Shown: positions 28,827-33,090 of the stretch, in pieces
Numbering within the stretch: the stretch's first letter is position 1
Layout: every line of letters begins with the position of its first letter
From: a virus
Direction: 5' to 3' (one strand)
IMG/VR virus record: IMGVR_UViG_3300042476_000233
Coordinates: 1 to 60,887 of that record
DNA: 60,887 nt
The notes under the pieces: model-generated
Seen by the model: only the letters and a program-made list of their open reading frames with translations
What the model was told of the DNA's origin: nothing
The model's database searches: none
Made by a program: the position numbers and the translations under genes

Positions 28827-29801
28827 ATGGCTCATCAAATCATGATCAAAAACAACGTCGCTCAATACGCAAGTACGCAGAGGGAATGGCACGGCCTGGG
28901 GCAACTGATGCTGCCCGGTCAGTCCATTGAGAAATGGCAAGAGGAAGCCGGTATGAACTATGAAGTGCAGCGCGGTTATGTTCGCTACGCCACCGAGCGT
29001 GGCCAGTCGGCTGACGCCATGAAGGTAGTGAAGGACAAGGTGGTGCTGTTCCGCAGCGACACCAAGGATGCCCTGGGCGTGGTGTCTGATTCCTACAAGG
29101 TGGTGCAGCCCCGTGAGGTGCTGGAGTTCTTCCGCGACTGGGCCACGGCAGGTGGCATGACGATTGAAAGTGCGGGGGTCTTGTTTGGTGGCAAGCGGTA
29201 CTTCGCCACAGCGAAGATGGCAGCGGGGGTTTGTGTTGACGGGTACTCCGACAGGATCGTGCCCTACGCTCTCCTGTCTACCTCCGCCGATGGCTCCCTG
29301 GCCACCGAGGCACGGTGGACTACCGTCCGGGTTGTGTGCAACAACACCCTGAGCATGGCACGCGAGGGCAAGGCAGCAGTGCGGGTGACGCACCGTAGTG
29401 AGTTCAAGCCTGAAGATGTGCGCGATGTGTTGGAGAACGCCAACGCTGAGTTCCATGCCTTCATGGAGATGAGCCGCCAACTGGCGGGCATCAAGGTCGC
29501 ACGCCCCTTGGCAGAAGACCTGACTATGCACCTCTTCAAGACCGGCACAACCAAGGACGCCGACAAGGTCAAGGAGTCGCGTGGCTTCATTCGCGTGATG
29601 GAGTTGTTCAACGGCGCAGCCAAGGGCGCGATGCTTGAGACAGCGCAGGAAACTGCATGGGGTTGGCTCAACGCGGTCACCGAGTACGCTGACCACCACA
29701 TCCGCGCTCACTCGGATGAGAACCGCACCGCCTCTGCTCTGTGGGGCCAGGGCGACACGCTCAAGAACCGCGCAGTTGAGTTGGCTCTGGCTGCAGCGTG
29801 A
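28827..29801 (+). CDS. DUF932 family protein
   Basis: The product is 324 residues from ATG 28827 after ACTAGGAGAAAGCAAC. The conserved features are REWHGLG near residue 23, DALGVVSDSYKVVQPREVLE and EARWTTVRVVCNNTLSMA, followed by VRVTHRSEFKPEDV. This matches the DUF932 phage/plasmid-like family, which is widespread but without a firm biochemical function; links to recombination or plasmid replication have been suggested for relatives. It is among the best-conserved genes of the module. Confidence 0.85.
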   Translation: MAHQIMIKNNVAQYASTQREWHGLGQLMLPGQSIEKWQEEAGMNYEVQRGYVRYATERGQSADAMKVVKDKVVLFRSDTKDALGVVSDSYKVVQPREVLEFFRDWATAGGMTIESAGVLFGGKRYFATAKMAAGVCVDGYSDRIVPYALLSTSADGSLATEARWTTVRVVCNNTLSMAREGKAAVRVTHRSEFKPEDVRDVLENANAEFHAFMEMSRQLAGIKVARPLAEDLTMHLFKTGTTKDADKVKESRGFIRVMELFNGAAKGAMLETAQETAWGWLNAVTEYADHHIRAHSDENRTASALWGQGDTLKNRAVELALAAA

Positions 29802-29834
29802 AGACCGTCTCTTTCACTATCAACATCTCTTCTT

Positions 29835-29862
29835 CCGAGGGCTTGCGCCCTCGGTTGCTTCT
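29835..29862 (+). terminator. Probable terminator after the DUF932 gene
   Basis: CCGAGGGC (29835-29842), loop TTGC, GCCCTCGG (29847-29854), then TTGCTTCT. A perfect 8-bp stem with a weak T tract. Confidence 0.65.
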
Positions 29863-29902
29863 GTCTAAACTTGGACTTCCCACAACCACAAAGGAGAAAG
29901 CA

Positions 29903-30292
29903 ATGACCGAAACCGTAACAACCCCAACCAAGATTAACAAGGCGGAACTCATCCGCACCCTGCTCAAAGACAAAACCAAATCCAAGAGCGACATCGCCGA
30001 GGAGGTCGGCTGCAAAGTGCAGTACGTCTTCAGCGTGCAGAACCATGACCGGGTGAGGGCCAGGAAAGCCAGGGCCAAGCGCAAGCTGGAGCGTCAGGCA
30101 GAACTGCGCAACGGCGCGCCCAAGCGCAAGTACACCAAGAGCGGAAAGTATGCGAAGCAGGTTCCCGCGCCCACCACGCCGATGGTGGAGCCGGTTGTGA
30201 AGACGCAGTACATCGAGATCGAGGTACCGCAGCCGCACTACAACCTGACATGGCGTCAGCGTTTCACTGCGCTGTTTTTCGGGAGGGTCTGA
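29903..30292 (+). CDS. Basic HTH-like protein
   Basis: The product is 129 residues from ATG 29903 after AAAGGAGAAAGCA; a longer upstream reading crosses the terminator. KAELIRTLLKDKTKSKSDIA followed by EEVGCKVQYVFSVQN resembles a helix-turn-helix. It continues with an Arg/Lys-rich helix (RARKARAKRKLERQAELRN) and a Pro-rich region. It is probably a DNA-binding regulator. Ends 2 bp before the next start. Confidence 0.7.
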   Translation: MTETVTTPTKINKAELIRTLLKDKTKSKSDIAEEVGCKVQYVFSVQNHDRVRARKARAKRKLERQAELRNGAPKRKYTKSGKYAKQVPAPTTPMVEPVVKTQYIEIEVPQPHYNLTWRQRFTALFFGRV

Positions 30293-30294
30293 GC

Positions 30295-30489
30295 ATGAAG
30301 TTCTACGAGATCGAACTCAGGCGCGAGTCCTACATCACCGTTGTCGTCAGCGGCACCTCTGCGGAAGAAGCAGCGGAAAAGCTCCTCAACAACTTGGAGG
30401 AGTACGTCGATGGCGACCCCGATGAAGCCGACTGGGACATCACCGATATCAACGAAGCGGAAAGAACCGAGGAGGACAGAGCAGAATGA
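30295..30489 (+). CDS. Small acidic protein
   Basis: The product is 64 residues: MKFYEIELRRESYITVVVSG, a helix (SAEEAAEKLLNNLEEYVDGD) and an acidic tail ending AERTEEDRAE. The beta-alpha pattern and acidic end are typical of small phage accessory proteins. It shares an ATGA overlap with the next gene. Confidence 0.65.
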   Translation: MKFYEIELRRESYITVVVSGTSAEEAAEKLLNNLEEYVDGDPDEADWDITDINEAERTEEDRAE

Positions 30490-30647
30490 AAACACGCGCA
30501 TTGAAACTGGTACGTGAGTTGTTCGCCGTGGACTATGTGCCGCTGCACACGCAGCGCCACAACCAACGGCAGTGGGTCAAGAGCGTTCGTCAACTGGGTG
30601 ACCGATGGCTACTCGCAAAACCACTCGACCTGCCCAAGAAGCACTAG
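30486..30647 (+). CDS. Small basic protein
   Basis: The product is 53 residues beginning MKTRALKLVRELFAVDYVPL, then HTQRHNQRQWVKSVRQLGDR and a KPLDLPKKH end. It resembles small phage proteins with an R-Y-(A/V)P-x-x-x-x-R--N-R-W--SVR-LGDRWLL pattern seen in other genomes; no function is known. The start overlaps the previous stop. Confidence 0.65.
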   Translation: MKTRALKLVRELFAVDYVPLHTQRHNQRQWVKSVRQLGDRWLLAKPLDLPKKH

Positions 30648-30757
30648 ACCCACCACCCAAGGTCTGGCCCTTCCCAACGTGGAAGGGCCGACCGTACAAG
30701 CAACCAAAACAACAAAAACCCGATCCGGTGGCGGGACTACCACCAGCACTGTTCTAG
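30605..30757 (+). CDS. Possible Pro-rich 50-residue ORF
   Basis: It overlaps the end of the previous gene and reads MATRKTTRPAQEALDPPPKV, then WPFPTWKGRPYKQPKQQK. No good ribosome site is seen, and a 9-bp hairpin (30666-30674 with 30681-30689) lies inside it. It may be a real short gene or just leader DNA of the next gene. Confidence 0.35.
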   Translation: MATRKTTRPAQEALDPPPKVWPFPTWKGRPYKQPKQQKPDPVAGLPPALF

Positions 30758-30766
30758 GAGAAAGCA

Positions 30767-31423
30767 ATGATCAAAGAAGAAACCTGCATCATCAGCCCGC
30801 CGAAGTTCGGCGTCACCGACTTCTACATCGAGGGCGCTGCGCCCCTGGTGGTGGAGCGGTTCAGCAAGAAGGCTGAACTCATGGCCAAGATGGCCGAGGG
30901 CCAGTCAGCCAAGAACAAGAAGGCCCGCGACGCACGGGACTACGACAAGGAAGCCGAAGAGGCGCGCTATCGCAGCATCGATGGGTGGGAGGGCATGAAC
31001 GCCGCCGCGTTCCGTGCCGCCATGATCAGCGCCTGCCGACTCGTGGGGTTCAAGATGACGCTGGCCAAGTTGTCTGCGTTCATCGAGGCCGATGGGTTCG
31101 ACAAGAACGATGGCGTCCCCCTCGTGCGCATCTACGGCGAGAGTCAGGTTTACACGGCGCATACTCGTAACGCTACGGGTGTGGTCGATGTGCGTTCCCG
31201 TCCCATGTATCGCAACTGGGCCGCGCGTCTGCGTGTCCGGTACGACATGGATCAGTTCAAGATGGCCGATGTCTTGAACCTTGTCTCCCGGTGTGGGATG
31301 CAAGTGGGTATCGGTGCAGGCCGTCCCGACAGCAAGGCTTCTGCCGGATGCGGGTTCGGTCTGTTCAACGTAGTCCCGAGTGATCGGGAGAAGGAAGTGG
31401 TCGCCAAGTACGGCATCCAATAA
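30767..31423 (+). CDS. Conserved phage protein of unknown function
   Basis: The product is 218 residues from ATG 30767 after CTAGGAGAAAGCA. Its conserved stretches are MNAAAFRAAMISACRLVGFK, TLAKLSAFIEADGFDKNDG and GMQVGIGAGRPDSKASAGCG. I recognise this layout from many phage early regions, where it is annotated as hypothetical; its neighbours are often recombination or SSB genes. The end of the gene borders the 5-nt periodic tract. A nucleic-acid-related role is inferred only. Confidence 0.75.
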   Translation: MIKEETCIISPPKFGVTDFYIEGAAPLVVERFSKKAELMAKMAEGQSAKNKKARDARDYDKEAEEARYRSIDGWEGMNAAAFRAAMISACRLVGFKMTLAKLSAFIEADGFDKNDGVPLVRIYGESQVYTAHTRNATGVVDVRSRPMYRNWAARLRVRYDMDQFKMADVLNLVSRCGMQVGIGAGRPDSKASAGCGFGLFNVVPSDREKEVVAKYGIQ

Positions 31424-31950
31424 GGCAGGCTAGGCTCGTCTTGGTATCGACAGGCCCGTCCCGGTTAGGCAGGTTCGGCTCGTCCTGGCTAGGCGCGGTG
31501 CAGTACGGTTCAGCAAGGCAGGCGGGGCTAGGCGCGAATAGGCGCGTTTCGGCAGCGCGTGGCGAGGCAAGGCAGGTGCGTCAAGGCGGCGCGGGGCTTG
31601 GATCGACCCGGACAGGCAAGGCAGGTCTGGCGTGGACAGGCGGGTTCGGGCGAGGCACGGTTGGGTACGGCAAGGCAGGCGGGGCTGGGCTAGTCTAGTT
31701 CTGGTAGGGCAGAGCATGTTTCGGCAAGGCAGGCTTGGCAGGGCTCGGAGCGGCAGCGTCGGGCTAGGTATGGCACATCACGGCAGGCAAGGCTAGGCGG
31801 GTTCCAGTGCGGTCAGGTAAGGCTAGGCGAGGCAGGTCAGGAAAGGCCCGGCTTGGACGGGCGAGGTGCGGCGAAGCGAGGCAACGCACGGCAGGTAAGG
31901 CAAGGAAAGGCATCGCAGGGCCGGGCGCGGTGTGGTACCGCAGGCATTTA
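31424..31950. repeat. G-rich tract with 5-nt periodicity
   Basis: About 520 bp of non-coding, low-complexity DNA, made of degenerate pentamers of the form GGNNN or NNGGC (GGCAA, GGCAG, GGCTA, GGCGA and variants). Between 31624 and 31675 GG falls at 31624, 31629, 31634, 31639, 31649, 31654, 31659, 31664, 31669 and 31674; only one register of eleven is broken. In the 60 bases 31621-31680 I count 30 G, 13 C, 9 A, 8 T. Phase slips occur, as expected of a diverged tandem repeat. Open frames on both strands look like shadows: they lack ribosome sites and sensible composition. Confidence 0.85.
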
Positions 31951-31968
31951 ACTTTTTAAGGAGAAAGC

Positions 31969-32424
31969 ATGAAAGAGGAACGGAAACTTTTGACTGACAT
32001 GGCACGGCGCAACGGCGGCGTGCTCAAGGTAGAGGACGTGATCGCTGAGGCAAGCAGTGCCGACAGCATCCTGCACAAACACTTTGAGTGGGACGACACG
32101 AAGGCTGCTGAGAACTACCGCAGGGAGCAGGCACGCTCGCTGATTCAGCGGTGCAAGATCACGCTGGTGGAGGGCGAGCCCGTATCCGTGCGGGCGTTCG
32201 TCAGTCTGCCGACTGATCGAGAGAGTGGCGGAGGCTACCGCCTCACGTCGGAGGTCATAAGCAACGAATCCCAGAAGGAGGAACTGCTGCGCGACATCCA
32301 GTTGACCATCGCCCGCTGGTCGCAGAAGCTGCACCTGCTCGATCAGGACATCGCTGAACTGCTCGAAGAGGTGGATAACCGAATCAATAGTAAACAGGCA
32401 GACGCTACGCGGGTAGCGGCCTGA
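31969..32424 (+). CDS. Conserved early phage protein
   Basis: The product is 151 residues from ATG 31969 after TTAAGGAGAAAGC. It opens MKEERKLLTDMARRNGGVLK, continues ADSILHKHFEWDDTKAAENY and RREQARSLIQRCKITLVEGE, and ends with a helical region (AELLEEVDNRINSKQAD). The H--F-WDD-KAAE-YR-EQAR-LI pattern is widespread in phages with no known activity. It is the first gene after the periodic tract and starts an overlapping gene run to 33718. Confidence 0.75.
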   Translation: MKEERKLLTDMARRNGGVLKVEDVIAEASSADSILHKHFEWDDTKAAENYRREQARSLIQRCKITLVEGEPVSVRAFVSLPTDRESGGGYRLTSEVISNESQKEELLRDIQLTIARWSQKLHLLDQDIAELLEEVDNRINSKQADATRVAA

Positions 32425-32441
32425 ACCCATAGGAGCAAACC

Positions 32442-32567
32442 ATGCAGAGACTCAACGAAGATGACGGACTCGACGAACTGGGCTGGCTCGCCGCCATGCT
32501 GGGCGCCCTTGGCTTCCTGTTCTTCGCCCTGGTGTACTTCCTGCACTGGGCGGGGTGGCTTACATGA
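32442..32567 (+). CDS. 41-residue single-TM protein
   Basis: It reads MQRLNEDDGLDELGWLAAML and continues through a single hydrophobic segment (GALGFLFFALVYFLHW). Ribosome site AGGAGC is 8 bp upstream. The ATGA overlap with the next membrane peptide suggests a coupled pair of inner-membrane peptides. Function unknown. Confidence 0.65.
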   Translation: MQRLNEDDGLDELGWLAAMLGALGFLFFALVYFLHWAGWLT

Positions 32568-32683
32568 AATGGCTTGGTGAATTCATCGTCCTGTACTGGC
32601 TGATCACCGTCTTGGTCGTGGTGTTCCTCGCCCCGTTCGTGACGCTGATGATGTTGATCAGTTATTTGTGGGGGTTGGTATGA
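32564..32683 (+). CDS. 39-residue hydrophobic protein
   Basis: It reads MKWLGEFIVLYWLITVLVVV and then FLAPFVTLMMLISYLWGLV, so it is hydrophobic for nearly its whole length (one long or two short membrane helices). ATGA overlaps join it to both neighbours. It may act with the preceding TM peptide on the host membrane. Unknown function. Confidence 0.65.
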   Translation: MKWLGEFIVLYWLITVLVVVFLAPFVTLMMLISYLWGLV

Positions 32684-33090
32684 GTGAAGCGTTGAGATTG
32701 GCTGAATTGATTGACAACGACCTGAAGAAATCCGCGCATCACGAAGAAGCCGCTGCTGAACTGCGCCGCCTTCATGCGGAGAACAAACGCCTGGAGACGC
32801 TCTGCTACGACTACCTTGGTGAACTGACAGCCATGCGTGCAGTGGAGCACATGCGAAAGCAGACCTTCATGGCTGAGTACAAGTTCCGCACTTACGGCTA
32901 CTACCAAGACGCCGACGGCAAGATGCAGGTGGGCGAGATACCGGAAGAGATGTTGACCGTGAGCGTAGAGGAGTTGATTGAGAAGGCTGTACTGGCCGAA
33001 CGTGAGGCGTGTGCGGAGTTGATTGAAGACATGGCTGTGCAGCACCCGAAGTACATCGCCGCCGCCATCAGAGCAAGGGGGCGGGAATGA
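32680..33090 (+). CDS. Helical early protein
   Basis: The product is 136 residues from ATG 32680, which overlaps the previous TGA. N-terminal MSEALRLAELIDNDLKKSAH then RRLHAENKRLETLCYDYLGE, a coiled-coil-type start, followed by VEELIEKAVLAEREACAELI and a short basic end. The AE-A---R-L--EN--L pattern is common in small phage proteins. Unknown function. Confidence 0.7.
   Translation: MSEALRLAELIDNDLKKSAHHEEAAAELRRLHAENKRLETLCYDYLGELTAMRAVEHMRKQTFMAEYKFRTYGYYQDADGKMQVGEIPEEMLTVSVEELIEKAVLAEREACAELIEDMAVQHPKYIAAAIRARGRE

What the first reader, a model, noticed from the sequence alone, without database searches (positions are those of the whole stretch)
31424..31950. A 520-bp non-coding tract with one GG every five bases
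The tract between two early genes is made of degenerate pentamers (GGNNN / NNGGC). In 31624-31675 ten of eleven successive registers carry GG exactly five bases apart; one 60-base line has 30 G and 13 C. Five is not a multiple of three, so this is not codon-driven, and five is about half a helical turn, so GG steps recur on alternate faces of the helix. GG-N3-GG-N3-GG-N3-GG also fits two-quartet quadruplexes on the plus strand. Possible roles: replication origin or R-loop primer site, filament-nucleation or segregation-like site, structured RNA, or a diverged selfish tandem repeat. I know of no described function for such an element.
Basis: partly seen in the sequence, partly recalled or inferred. 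Interest (0 to 1): 0.82.

Follow-up and report, generated by a model that had tools for sequence, protein, structure and literature searches.

The report
Phage VIPR guide-RNA array
The odd "GG every five bases" stretch is a row of about ten guide RNAs of a phage-borne, CRISPR-like weapon called VIPR, first described in a 2026 preprint, so it is a new member of a known system, not an unknown element.

Summary
In detail: GG recurs at a spacing of five 53 times in the 527-bp tract, against 19.4 ± 3.8 in dinucleotide shuffles (maximum 34 of 1000). The tract is ten tandem units of 44-59 bases (4+5k), each a run of GG[C/T/A]NN pentamers, set apart by a 4-base step in GGCAGG.

The flanking genes identify it. 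P0001 (30767-31423) has a RAMP/Cas7-like fold. Its family profile matches one solved protein, SUSP1 Vipr (36pp, E=1.6e-11). P0002 (31969-32424) is the constant second gene. The three-part module recurs in 45 of 48 fetched relatives, on one strand. This matches VIPR (PMC13142463): a RAMP protein loaded with GGY/NN guide RNAs that reads DNA through the NN pairs with one skipped base.

Two signatures found here agree. Guide sets turn over while the genes stay put (array 45% identical to L005, vipr 98%). Among homologous guides the third pentamer base varies about 2.5 times as often as NN. No natural target was found. Vap type, RNA processing and function of this locus are inferred.

The parts
30767..31423 (+). 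P0001, 218 aa, Vipr (stand-alone RAMP protein)
   Evidence: AlphaFold model pLDDT 78.6; best Foldseek matches are Csm3/Cas7-type subunits, E to 3.4e-5; family profile matches SUSP1 Vipr, PDB 36pp, E 1.6e-11; phrog_4652; invariant G-rich loop residues G177, G181, G183, R186, G198
31424..31945 (+). vrRNA array: ten units of GG[C/T/A]NN pentamers bounded by GGCAGG
31424..31430 (+). first boundary motif GGCAGGC, directly after the vipr stop codon
   Evidence: sequence
31428..31469 (+). guide unit 1, NN: TA TC TT AT CA CC CC TA
31472..31518 (+). guide unit 2, NN: TC TC CT TA GC GC AC TC AA
31521..31572 (+). guide unit 3, NN: GG TA GC TA GC TC AG GT GA AA
31575..31621 (+). guide unit 4, NN: GC AA GG GG TT TC CC CA AA
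31678..31729 (+). guide unit 6, NN: GG TG TA TA CT AG AG AT TC AA
31732..31783 (+). guide unit 7, NN: TT AG TC GC AG CG TA AT AC AC
31786..31832 (+). guide unit 8, NN: AA TA GG CC GC CA AA TA GA
31835..31891 (+). guide unit 9, NN: CA AA CC TT CG GA GC GA GA AA AC
31894..31940 (+). guide unit 10, NN: AA AA AA AT AG CG GC GT AC; the parser stopped at 31935, and the last pentamer plus the degenerate boundary CGCAGGC were read by eye
   Evidence: sequence
31939..31945 (+). last boundary motif CGCAGGC
   Evidence: sequence
31958..31964 (+). ribosome-binding site TAAGGAG of the next gene
   Evidence: sequence
31969..32424 (+). P0002, 151 aa, probable Vap (vipr accessory protein): helical N-terminal part with invariant FEW...A...R..QA..I, long C-terminal helix
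   Evidence: found with Vipr in every related locus fetched; phrog_15946; model pLDDT 85.1, pTM 0.43; no Pfam or PDB relative

Best explanation
The locus is a VIPR system: vipr (P0001), an array of about ten vrRNA units (31424-31945), and a vap-like gene (P0002). The array is transcribed on the + strand with the two genes. Each unit carries 9-12 GG[C/T/A]NN repeats. Copies of the RAMP protein Vipr would assemble along a unit, holding the GGY bases and presenting the NN pairs. The NN pairs together recognise a double-stranded DNA target of the form NNxNNxNN..., and bound complexes block transcription of genes of a competing phage, prophage or satellite. Shown here: the array anatomy, the RAMP fold and homology to SUSP1 Vipr, the constant three-part module, guide turnover with conserved flanks, and retention of NN within homologous guides. 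Inferred from the preprint and not shown for this locus: transcription, processing into single guides, the one-base skip rule, targets and repression. The 4-base GGCAGG step is inferred to mark guide boundaries.
For: Period-5 tract far above chance. Unit lengths are 4+5k and the boundary GGCAGG recurs across 22 arrays. Position entropies G1 0.59, G2 0.62, Y3 1.41, N4 1.95, N5 1.96 bits over 1663 pentamers. P0001 profile against PDB: the only match up to E 10 is SUSP1 Vipr, E 1.6e-11. Foldseek: the listed best matches are CRISPR effector subunits of the RAMP type. Module in 45 of 48 loci from cyanophage, mycobacteriophage, Gordonia phage, a Rhodoplanes plasmid and an Azohydromonas genome, with the tract before, between or after the genes, always on the gene strand. 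Hairpin terminators directly after the tract in L040 and L046 (sequence). Window against L005: vipr 97.9%, vap 92.9%, array 45.3% identical. In 34-36 clusters of homologous guides the third base varies in 14-16% of columns and NN in 5-7% (bootstrap 0 of 3000 for NN >= Y3; 0.0027 at the strictest threshold). Published system with the same parts: PMC13142463.
Against: No natural target was found for the guides tested: units 3, 5, 6, 7 and 9 in IMG/VR, and unit 5 in 399 genomes of one bacterial order; hits were at chance level. No long structured 3' tail like that of SUSP1 vrRNAs was seen; the units share only about 8-12 bases at the boundary and the RNA folds no better than shuffles. P0001 alone matches SUSP1 Vipr only weakly (E 0.016); the strong score needs the family profile. 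No sigma-70 promoter-like site was found in 29500-33000.
Confidence: 0.93

Rival explanations
1. The tract is a DNA site (origin, centromere-like or packaging site) made of pentamer iterons bound by P0001 or P0002.
For: Non-coding, strand-asymmetric and long; the gene pair P0001/P0002 always accompanies it.
Against: Two arrays end in a hairpin terminator (L040, L046). P0001 belongs to the Vipr/RAMP family, whose members load RNA (PMC13142463). A DNA iteron would conserve its sequence between close relatives, yet the array is 45% identical where the genes are 93-98%. The module sits among tail genes, near the repressor or excisionase, or in early genes.
Confidence: 0.03
2. A VIPR locus in which the array works mainly as one long RNA, or as overlapping (staggered) vrRNAs, rather than as ten separate ~50-nt guides. 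(A sub-case of the VIPR reading, not an alternative to it.)
For: Units abut without a separate tail; the preprint mentions staggered arrays with overlapping vrRNAs as one of several architectures.
Against: Unit boundaries are regular, and homologous units are shared or replaced as whole blocks. The supplement that shows the staggered type could not be read.
Confidence: 0.3
3. A diverged selfish tandem repeat without function.
For: Short degenerate repeat in an intergenic region.
Against: The GG positions are kept in loci of GC 49-67% while NN is near maximal entropy, and NN is retained within homologous units while the third base drifts; decay would not give this. The tract is linked to two genes even in loci whose Vipr homologs are only 31-57% identical to P0001.
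Confidence: 0.01

Closest known systems
VIPR (Viral Interference Programmable Repeat) systems, PMC13142463 / bioRxiv 2026.04.26.720920; SUSP1 Vipr, PDB 36pp
   Same: One small RAMP protein, one accessory gene, intergenic RNA of 9-16 YNNGG repeats with conserved GGY and hypervariable NN, in phages and prophages.
   Different: SUSP1 vrRNAs are about 100 nt with an invariant structured 3' tail. Here about ten units of 44-59 nt abut, with only a short boundary motif (GGCAGG). The type within VIPR could not be assigned.
Class 1 CRISPR-Cas (type III Csm3, type I and VII Cas7)
   Same: RAMP fold and G-rich loop; array of interchangeable guides; periodic protein-RNA assembly.
   Different: No other cas gene was recognised by Pfam or PHROGs among the ten window genes scanned, and there is no long direct repeat. 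The guide information is interrupted every two bases and the period is 5, not 6 (the 6 is from established knowledge of Cas7 filaments).
TIGR-Tas (recalled, not tested beyond fold)
   Same: Phage-associated array of short guides that are not CRISPR repeats.
   Different: Tas proteins carry a Nop domain (from memory); P0001 models as a RAMP.

Membership tests
VIPR | vipr gene: a RAMP homolog of the Vipr clade | tested here: met
   Profile match to SUSP1 Vipr E 1.6e-11; RAMP folds in Foldseek
VIPR | RNA region of 9-16 YNNGG repeats | tested here: met
   Ten units of 9-12 GG registers each
VIPR | GGY conserved, NN hypervariable | tested here: met
   Entropies 0.59/0.62/1.41 against 1.95/1.96 bits
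VIPR | accessory vap gene beside vipr | tested here: inconclusive
   P0002 is present in all related loci, but the vap sequences of the preprint were not available for comparison
VIPR | carried mainly by phages, prophages and other mobile elements | tested here: met
   The window is a virus record; relatives lie in viral contigs, phages and a plasmid, plus one bacterial genome contig
VIPR | invariant structured 3' tail after the repeats (shown for the SUSP1 clade) | tested here: not met
   Only a short boundary motif is shared; fold z = -0.39. The preprint describes other architectures, so this speaks against the SUSP1 type, not against VIPR
VIPR | NN positions match a DNA target with a one-base skip | tested here: inconclusive
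   No match beyond chance for five window units and one mycobacteriophage unit
VIPR | vrRNA expressed and bound by Vipr | not testable with these tools
   Needs sRNA-seq and pull-down
Class 1 CRISPR-Cas | several cas genes and an array of identical long repeats | tested here: not met
   Neighbouring genes are replication genes and unknowns; PADLOC finds nothing in the Vipr family; the only shared repeat is GGCAGG

The most novel reading that the evidence does not exclude
A compact VIPR architecture in which about ten tailless guides of ~50 nt are punctuated only by a one-base phase slip (GGCAGG), so that the slip itself separates, and perhaps processes, the guides. This may or may not equal the 'staggered array' type of the preprint, whose supplement could not be read.
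Probability: 0.25. Interest if true: 0.55.

Novelty: new member of a known kind. Interest (0 to 1): 0.45.

Why it matters
By the preprint's account VIPR reads DNA through a gapped code, unlike all other known guide systems, and may be the ancestor of CRISPR. This locus adds a ten-guide phage array with many close relatives in one collection. In that set guide replacement can be followed between phages whose vipr genes are 98% identical, and the mutation pattern (third base drifts, NN stays) supports the NN code from evolution alone, independently of target matching. It also shows the module in cyanophage, actinobacteriophage and proteobacterial elements, and that some of its arrays are annotated as protein genes.

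Tried and rejected
Coding tract: all six frames carry stops in the window. Folded RNA: z = -0.39; no Rfam family at gathering score. G-quadruplex and half-turn helical readings: not tested directly; the RNA-guide reading explains the period and the strand bias. RecT/annealing-protein idea for P0001, considered early: dropped after the RAMP match. Targets: 183 distinct units against 0.4 Mb of fetched loci gave no difference between skips 0-3, as expected for so little sequence. Eighteen-base patterns for units 9 and 5 gave no IMG/VR match. Sixteen-base seeds for units 7, 9, 3, 6 and one mycobacteriophage unit gave 6, 13, 0, 30 and 8 hits, none of which extended convincingly (best 19/22, or 18/20 for unit 6). 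Unit 5 with two mismatches in 399 genomes gave one sequence in two genomes, in an efflux-type gene judged from its translation. A first clustering of homologous guides at 30% difference merged unrelated units and was discarded.

Full report
Observation. In 31424-31950 there are 53 GG pairs at lag 5, against 19.4 ± 3.8 in dinucleotide shuffles, and nothing else in the window comes near. A fixed-phase Fourier test misses it because the phase slips by one base at intervals. A chaining parse shows why: the tract is ten runs of pentamers, and the runs are joined by a 4-base step. Distances between steps are 44, 49, 54 or 59, that is 4+5k. The step is almost always GGCAGG. The pentamer is GG[C/T/A]NN: G is practically absent at the third place, and the last two places are near maximal entropy.

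Setting. The window is a virus record. The tract lies directly after P0001 and before P0002, both of unknown function in PHROGs and without a Pfam family. Downstream lie a family A DNA polymerase, a PD-(D/E)XK exonuclease, an SNF2-type helicase and a DUF927 primase-like protein. The polymerase is 32% identical to that of Rhizobium phage RHph_TM3_14A.

Relatives. Searches with P0002 in IMG/VR, with P0001 and the tract in phage and plasmid records, and with P0001 in bacterial genomes gave 48 loci with a vipr-like gene, 47 of which were checked for and hold P0002 homologs too; L049 (Azohydromonas) was checked for the tract only. In 45 of the 48 a tract with the same period lies beside the genes on the same strand. 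The place differs: between the genes (window-like), after vap (Rhodoplanes plasmid L046), before vipr (mycobacteriophages L043, L047), or after a vap-vipr pair and before a terminator (L040). In Gordonia phage ODay and the Rhodoplanes plasmid the module sits between tail genes. It is thus a portable cassette of two genes and one RNA region. Three diverged loci (L039, L041, L042) have weak or no GG periodicity by the same measure.

Identity. An AlphaFold model of P0001 (pLDDT 78.6) matches CRISPR effector subunits of the Csm3/Cas7 kind at the top of the PDB list (E down to 3.4e-5, TM about 0.4). The family profile finds a single protein in the PDB up to E = 10: SUSP1 Vipr, 36pp, E 1.6e-11, aligned over nearly the whole length, including the G-rich loop. 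Alone, P0001 scores only E 0.016. A paper search found the preprint that describes VIPR (PMC13142463): an ancestral RAMP protein, an accessory gene, and RNAs of 9-16 YNNGG repeats whose NN pairs read double-stranded DNA with one skipped base, used between competing phages. The window has these parts. P0002 is helical with a long C-terminal helix and no recognisable enzyme domain. That would fit the types with DNA-binding rather than nuclease or helicase accessory proteins, but this is inference.

Evolutionary tests made here. First, guide turnover: between the window and L005 the vipr gene is 97.9% identical and the vap gene 92.9%, but the array is 45.3%, and no unit is identical. L006 shares 3 of 10 units exactly, L002-L004 all ten. 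Second, what is kept within a guide: among 34-36 clusters of homologous, non-identical units, the third pentamer base varies in 14-16% of columns (mostly C/T), the NN bases in 5-7% and the two G in 4-5%. No bootstrap of 3000 gave NN >= Y3; at the strictest threshold (35 clusters) the values are 9.8% against 3.7%, bootstrap 0.0027. Across unrelated units the order is the reverse: NN mismatch 73%, third base 55%, G 15-19%. This double pattern is what a guide read only at NN should leave. Caveat: the bootstrap treats clusters as independent, although several come from the same phage pairs.

Targets. None was found. Five window units and one mycobacteriophage unit were turned into NNx patterns and sought in IMG/VR, and one in 399 genomes of the order of Azohydromonas. 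Hits were at or near chance, and the few in-frame ones look like common protein motifs. A negative result is weak evidence, because the competitor of an uncultured phage need not be in the collections and most scans required exact 16-18-base matches.

Verdict. A new member of a described system. The parts and homology are shown. Transcription, processing at GGCAGG, the skip rule and the targets are carried over from the preprint by inference. The tailless, abutting ~50-nt units differ from the SUSP1 type and may be the preprint's staggered type or a further variant.

Noticed in passing
L043:3803-4189, L047:2591-2749, L044:3959-4282: Mycobacteriophage Donkeykong gp48, ByChance gp39 and Gordonia phage UmaThurman gp40 are annotated as hypothetical proteins but lie on the pentamer arrays; they are probably not genes.
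   Followed up: partly
L041:4427-5000, L042:4424-5024, L039:4424-4852: Diverged vipr/vap loci (P0001 20-25% identical) are followed by long tracts with weak GG period; recurring GCAGGC/ATGCAGG motifs suggest a related consensus with a different code.
   Followed up: no
L048:3950-5203, L046:3759-5150: The module sits among tail genes in Gordonia phage ODay (tail assembly chaperone to tape measure) and in a Rhodoplanes plasmid (gp10-like gene to tail terminator), an unusual place for a cargo cassette.
   Followed up: partly
L049:6001-7173: The genome of Azohydromonas aeria carries a close relative (Vipr 71% identical) with its own array, which suggests a betaproteobacterial host for the window's phage.
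   Followed up: partly
L069, L073-L076: Five of eight IMG/VR hits of one Donkeykong guide seed read in frame as AY(D/E)YPDG(S/R), a recurring protein motif; it could be a target family or mere coding bias.
   Followed up: no
window:44711-53173: A single open frame of 2820 aa on the minus strand, the largest in the window, not examined.
   Followed up: no
window:28746-29801: A DUF932 protein gene lies upstream of vipr; whether it belongs to the module was not tested.
   Followed up: no
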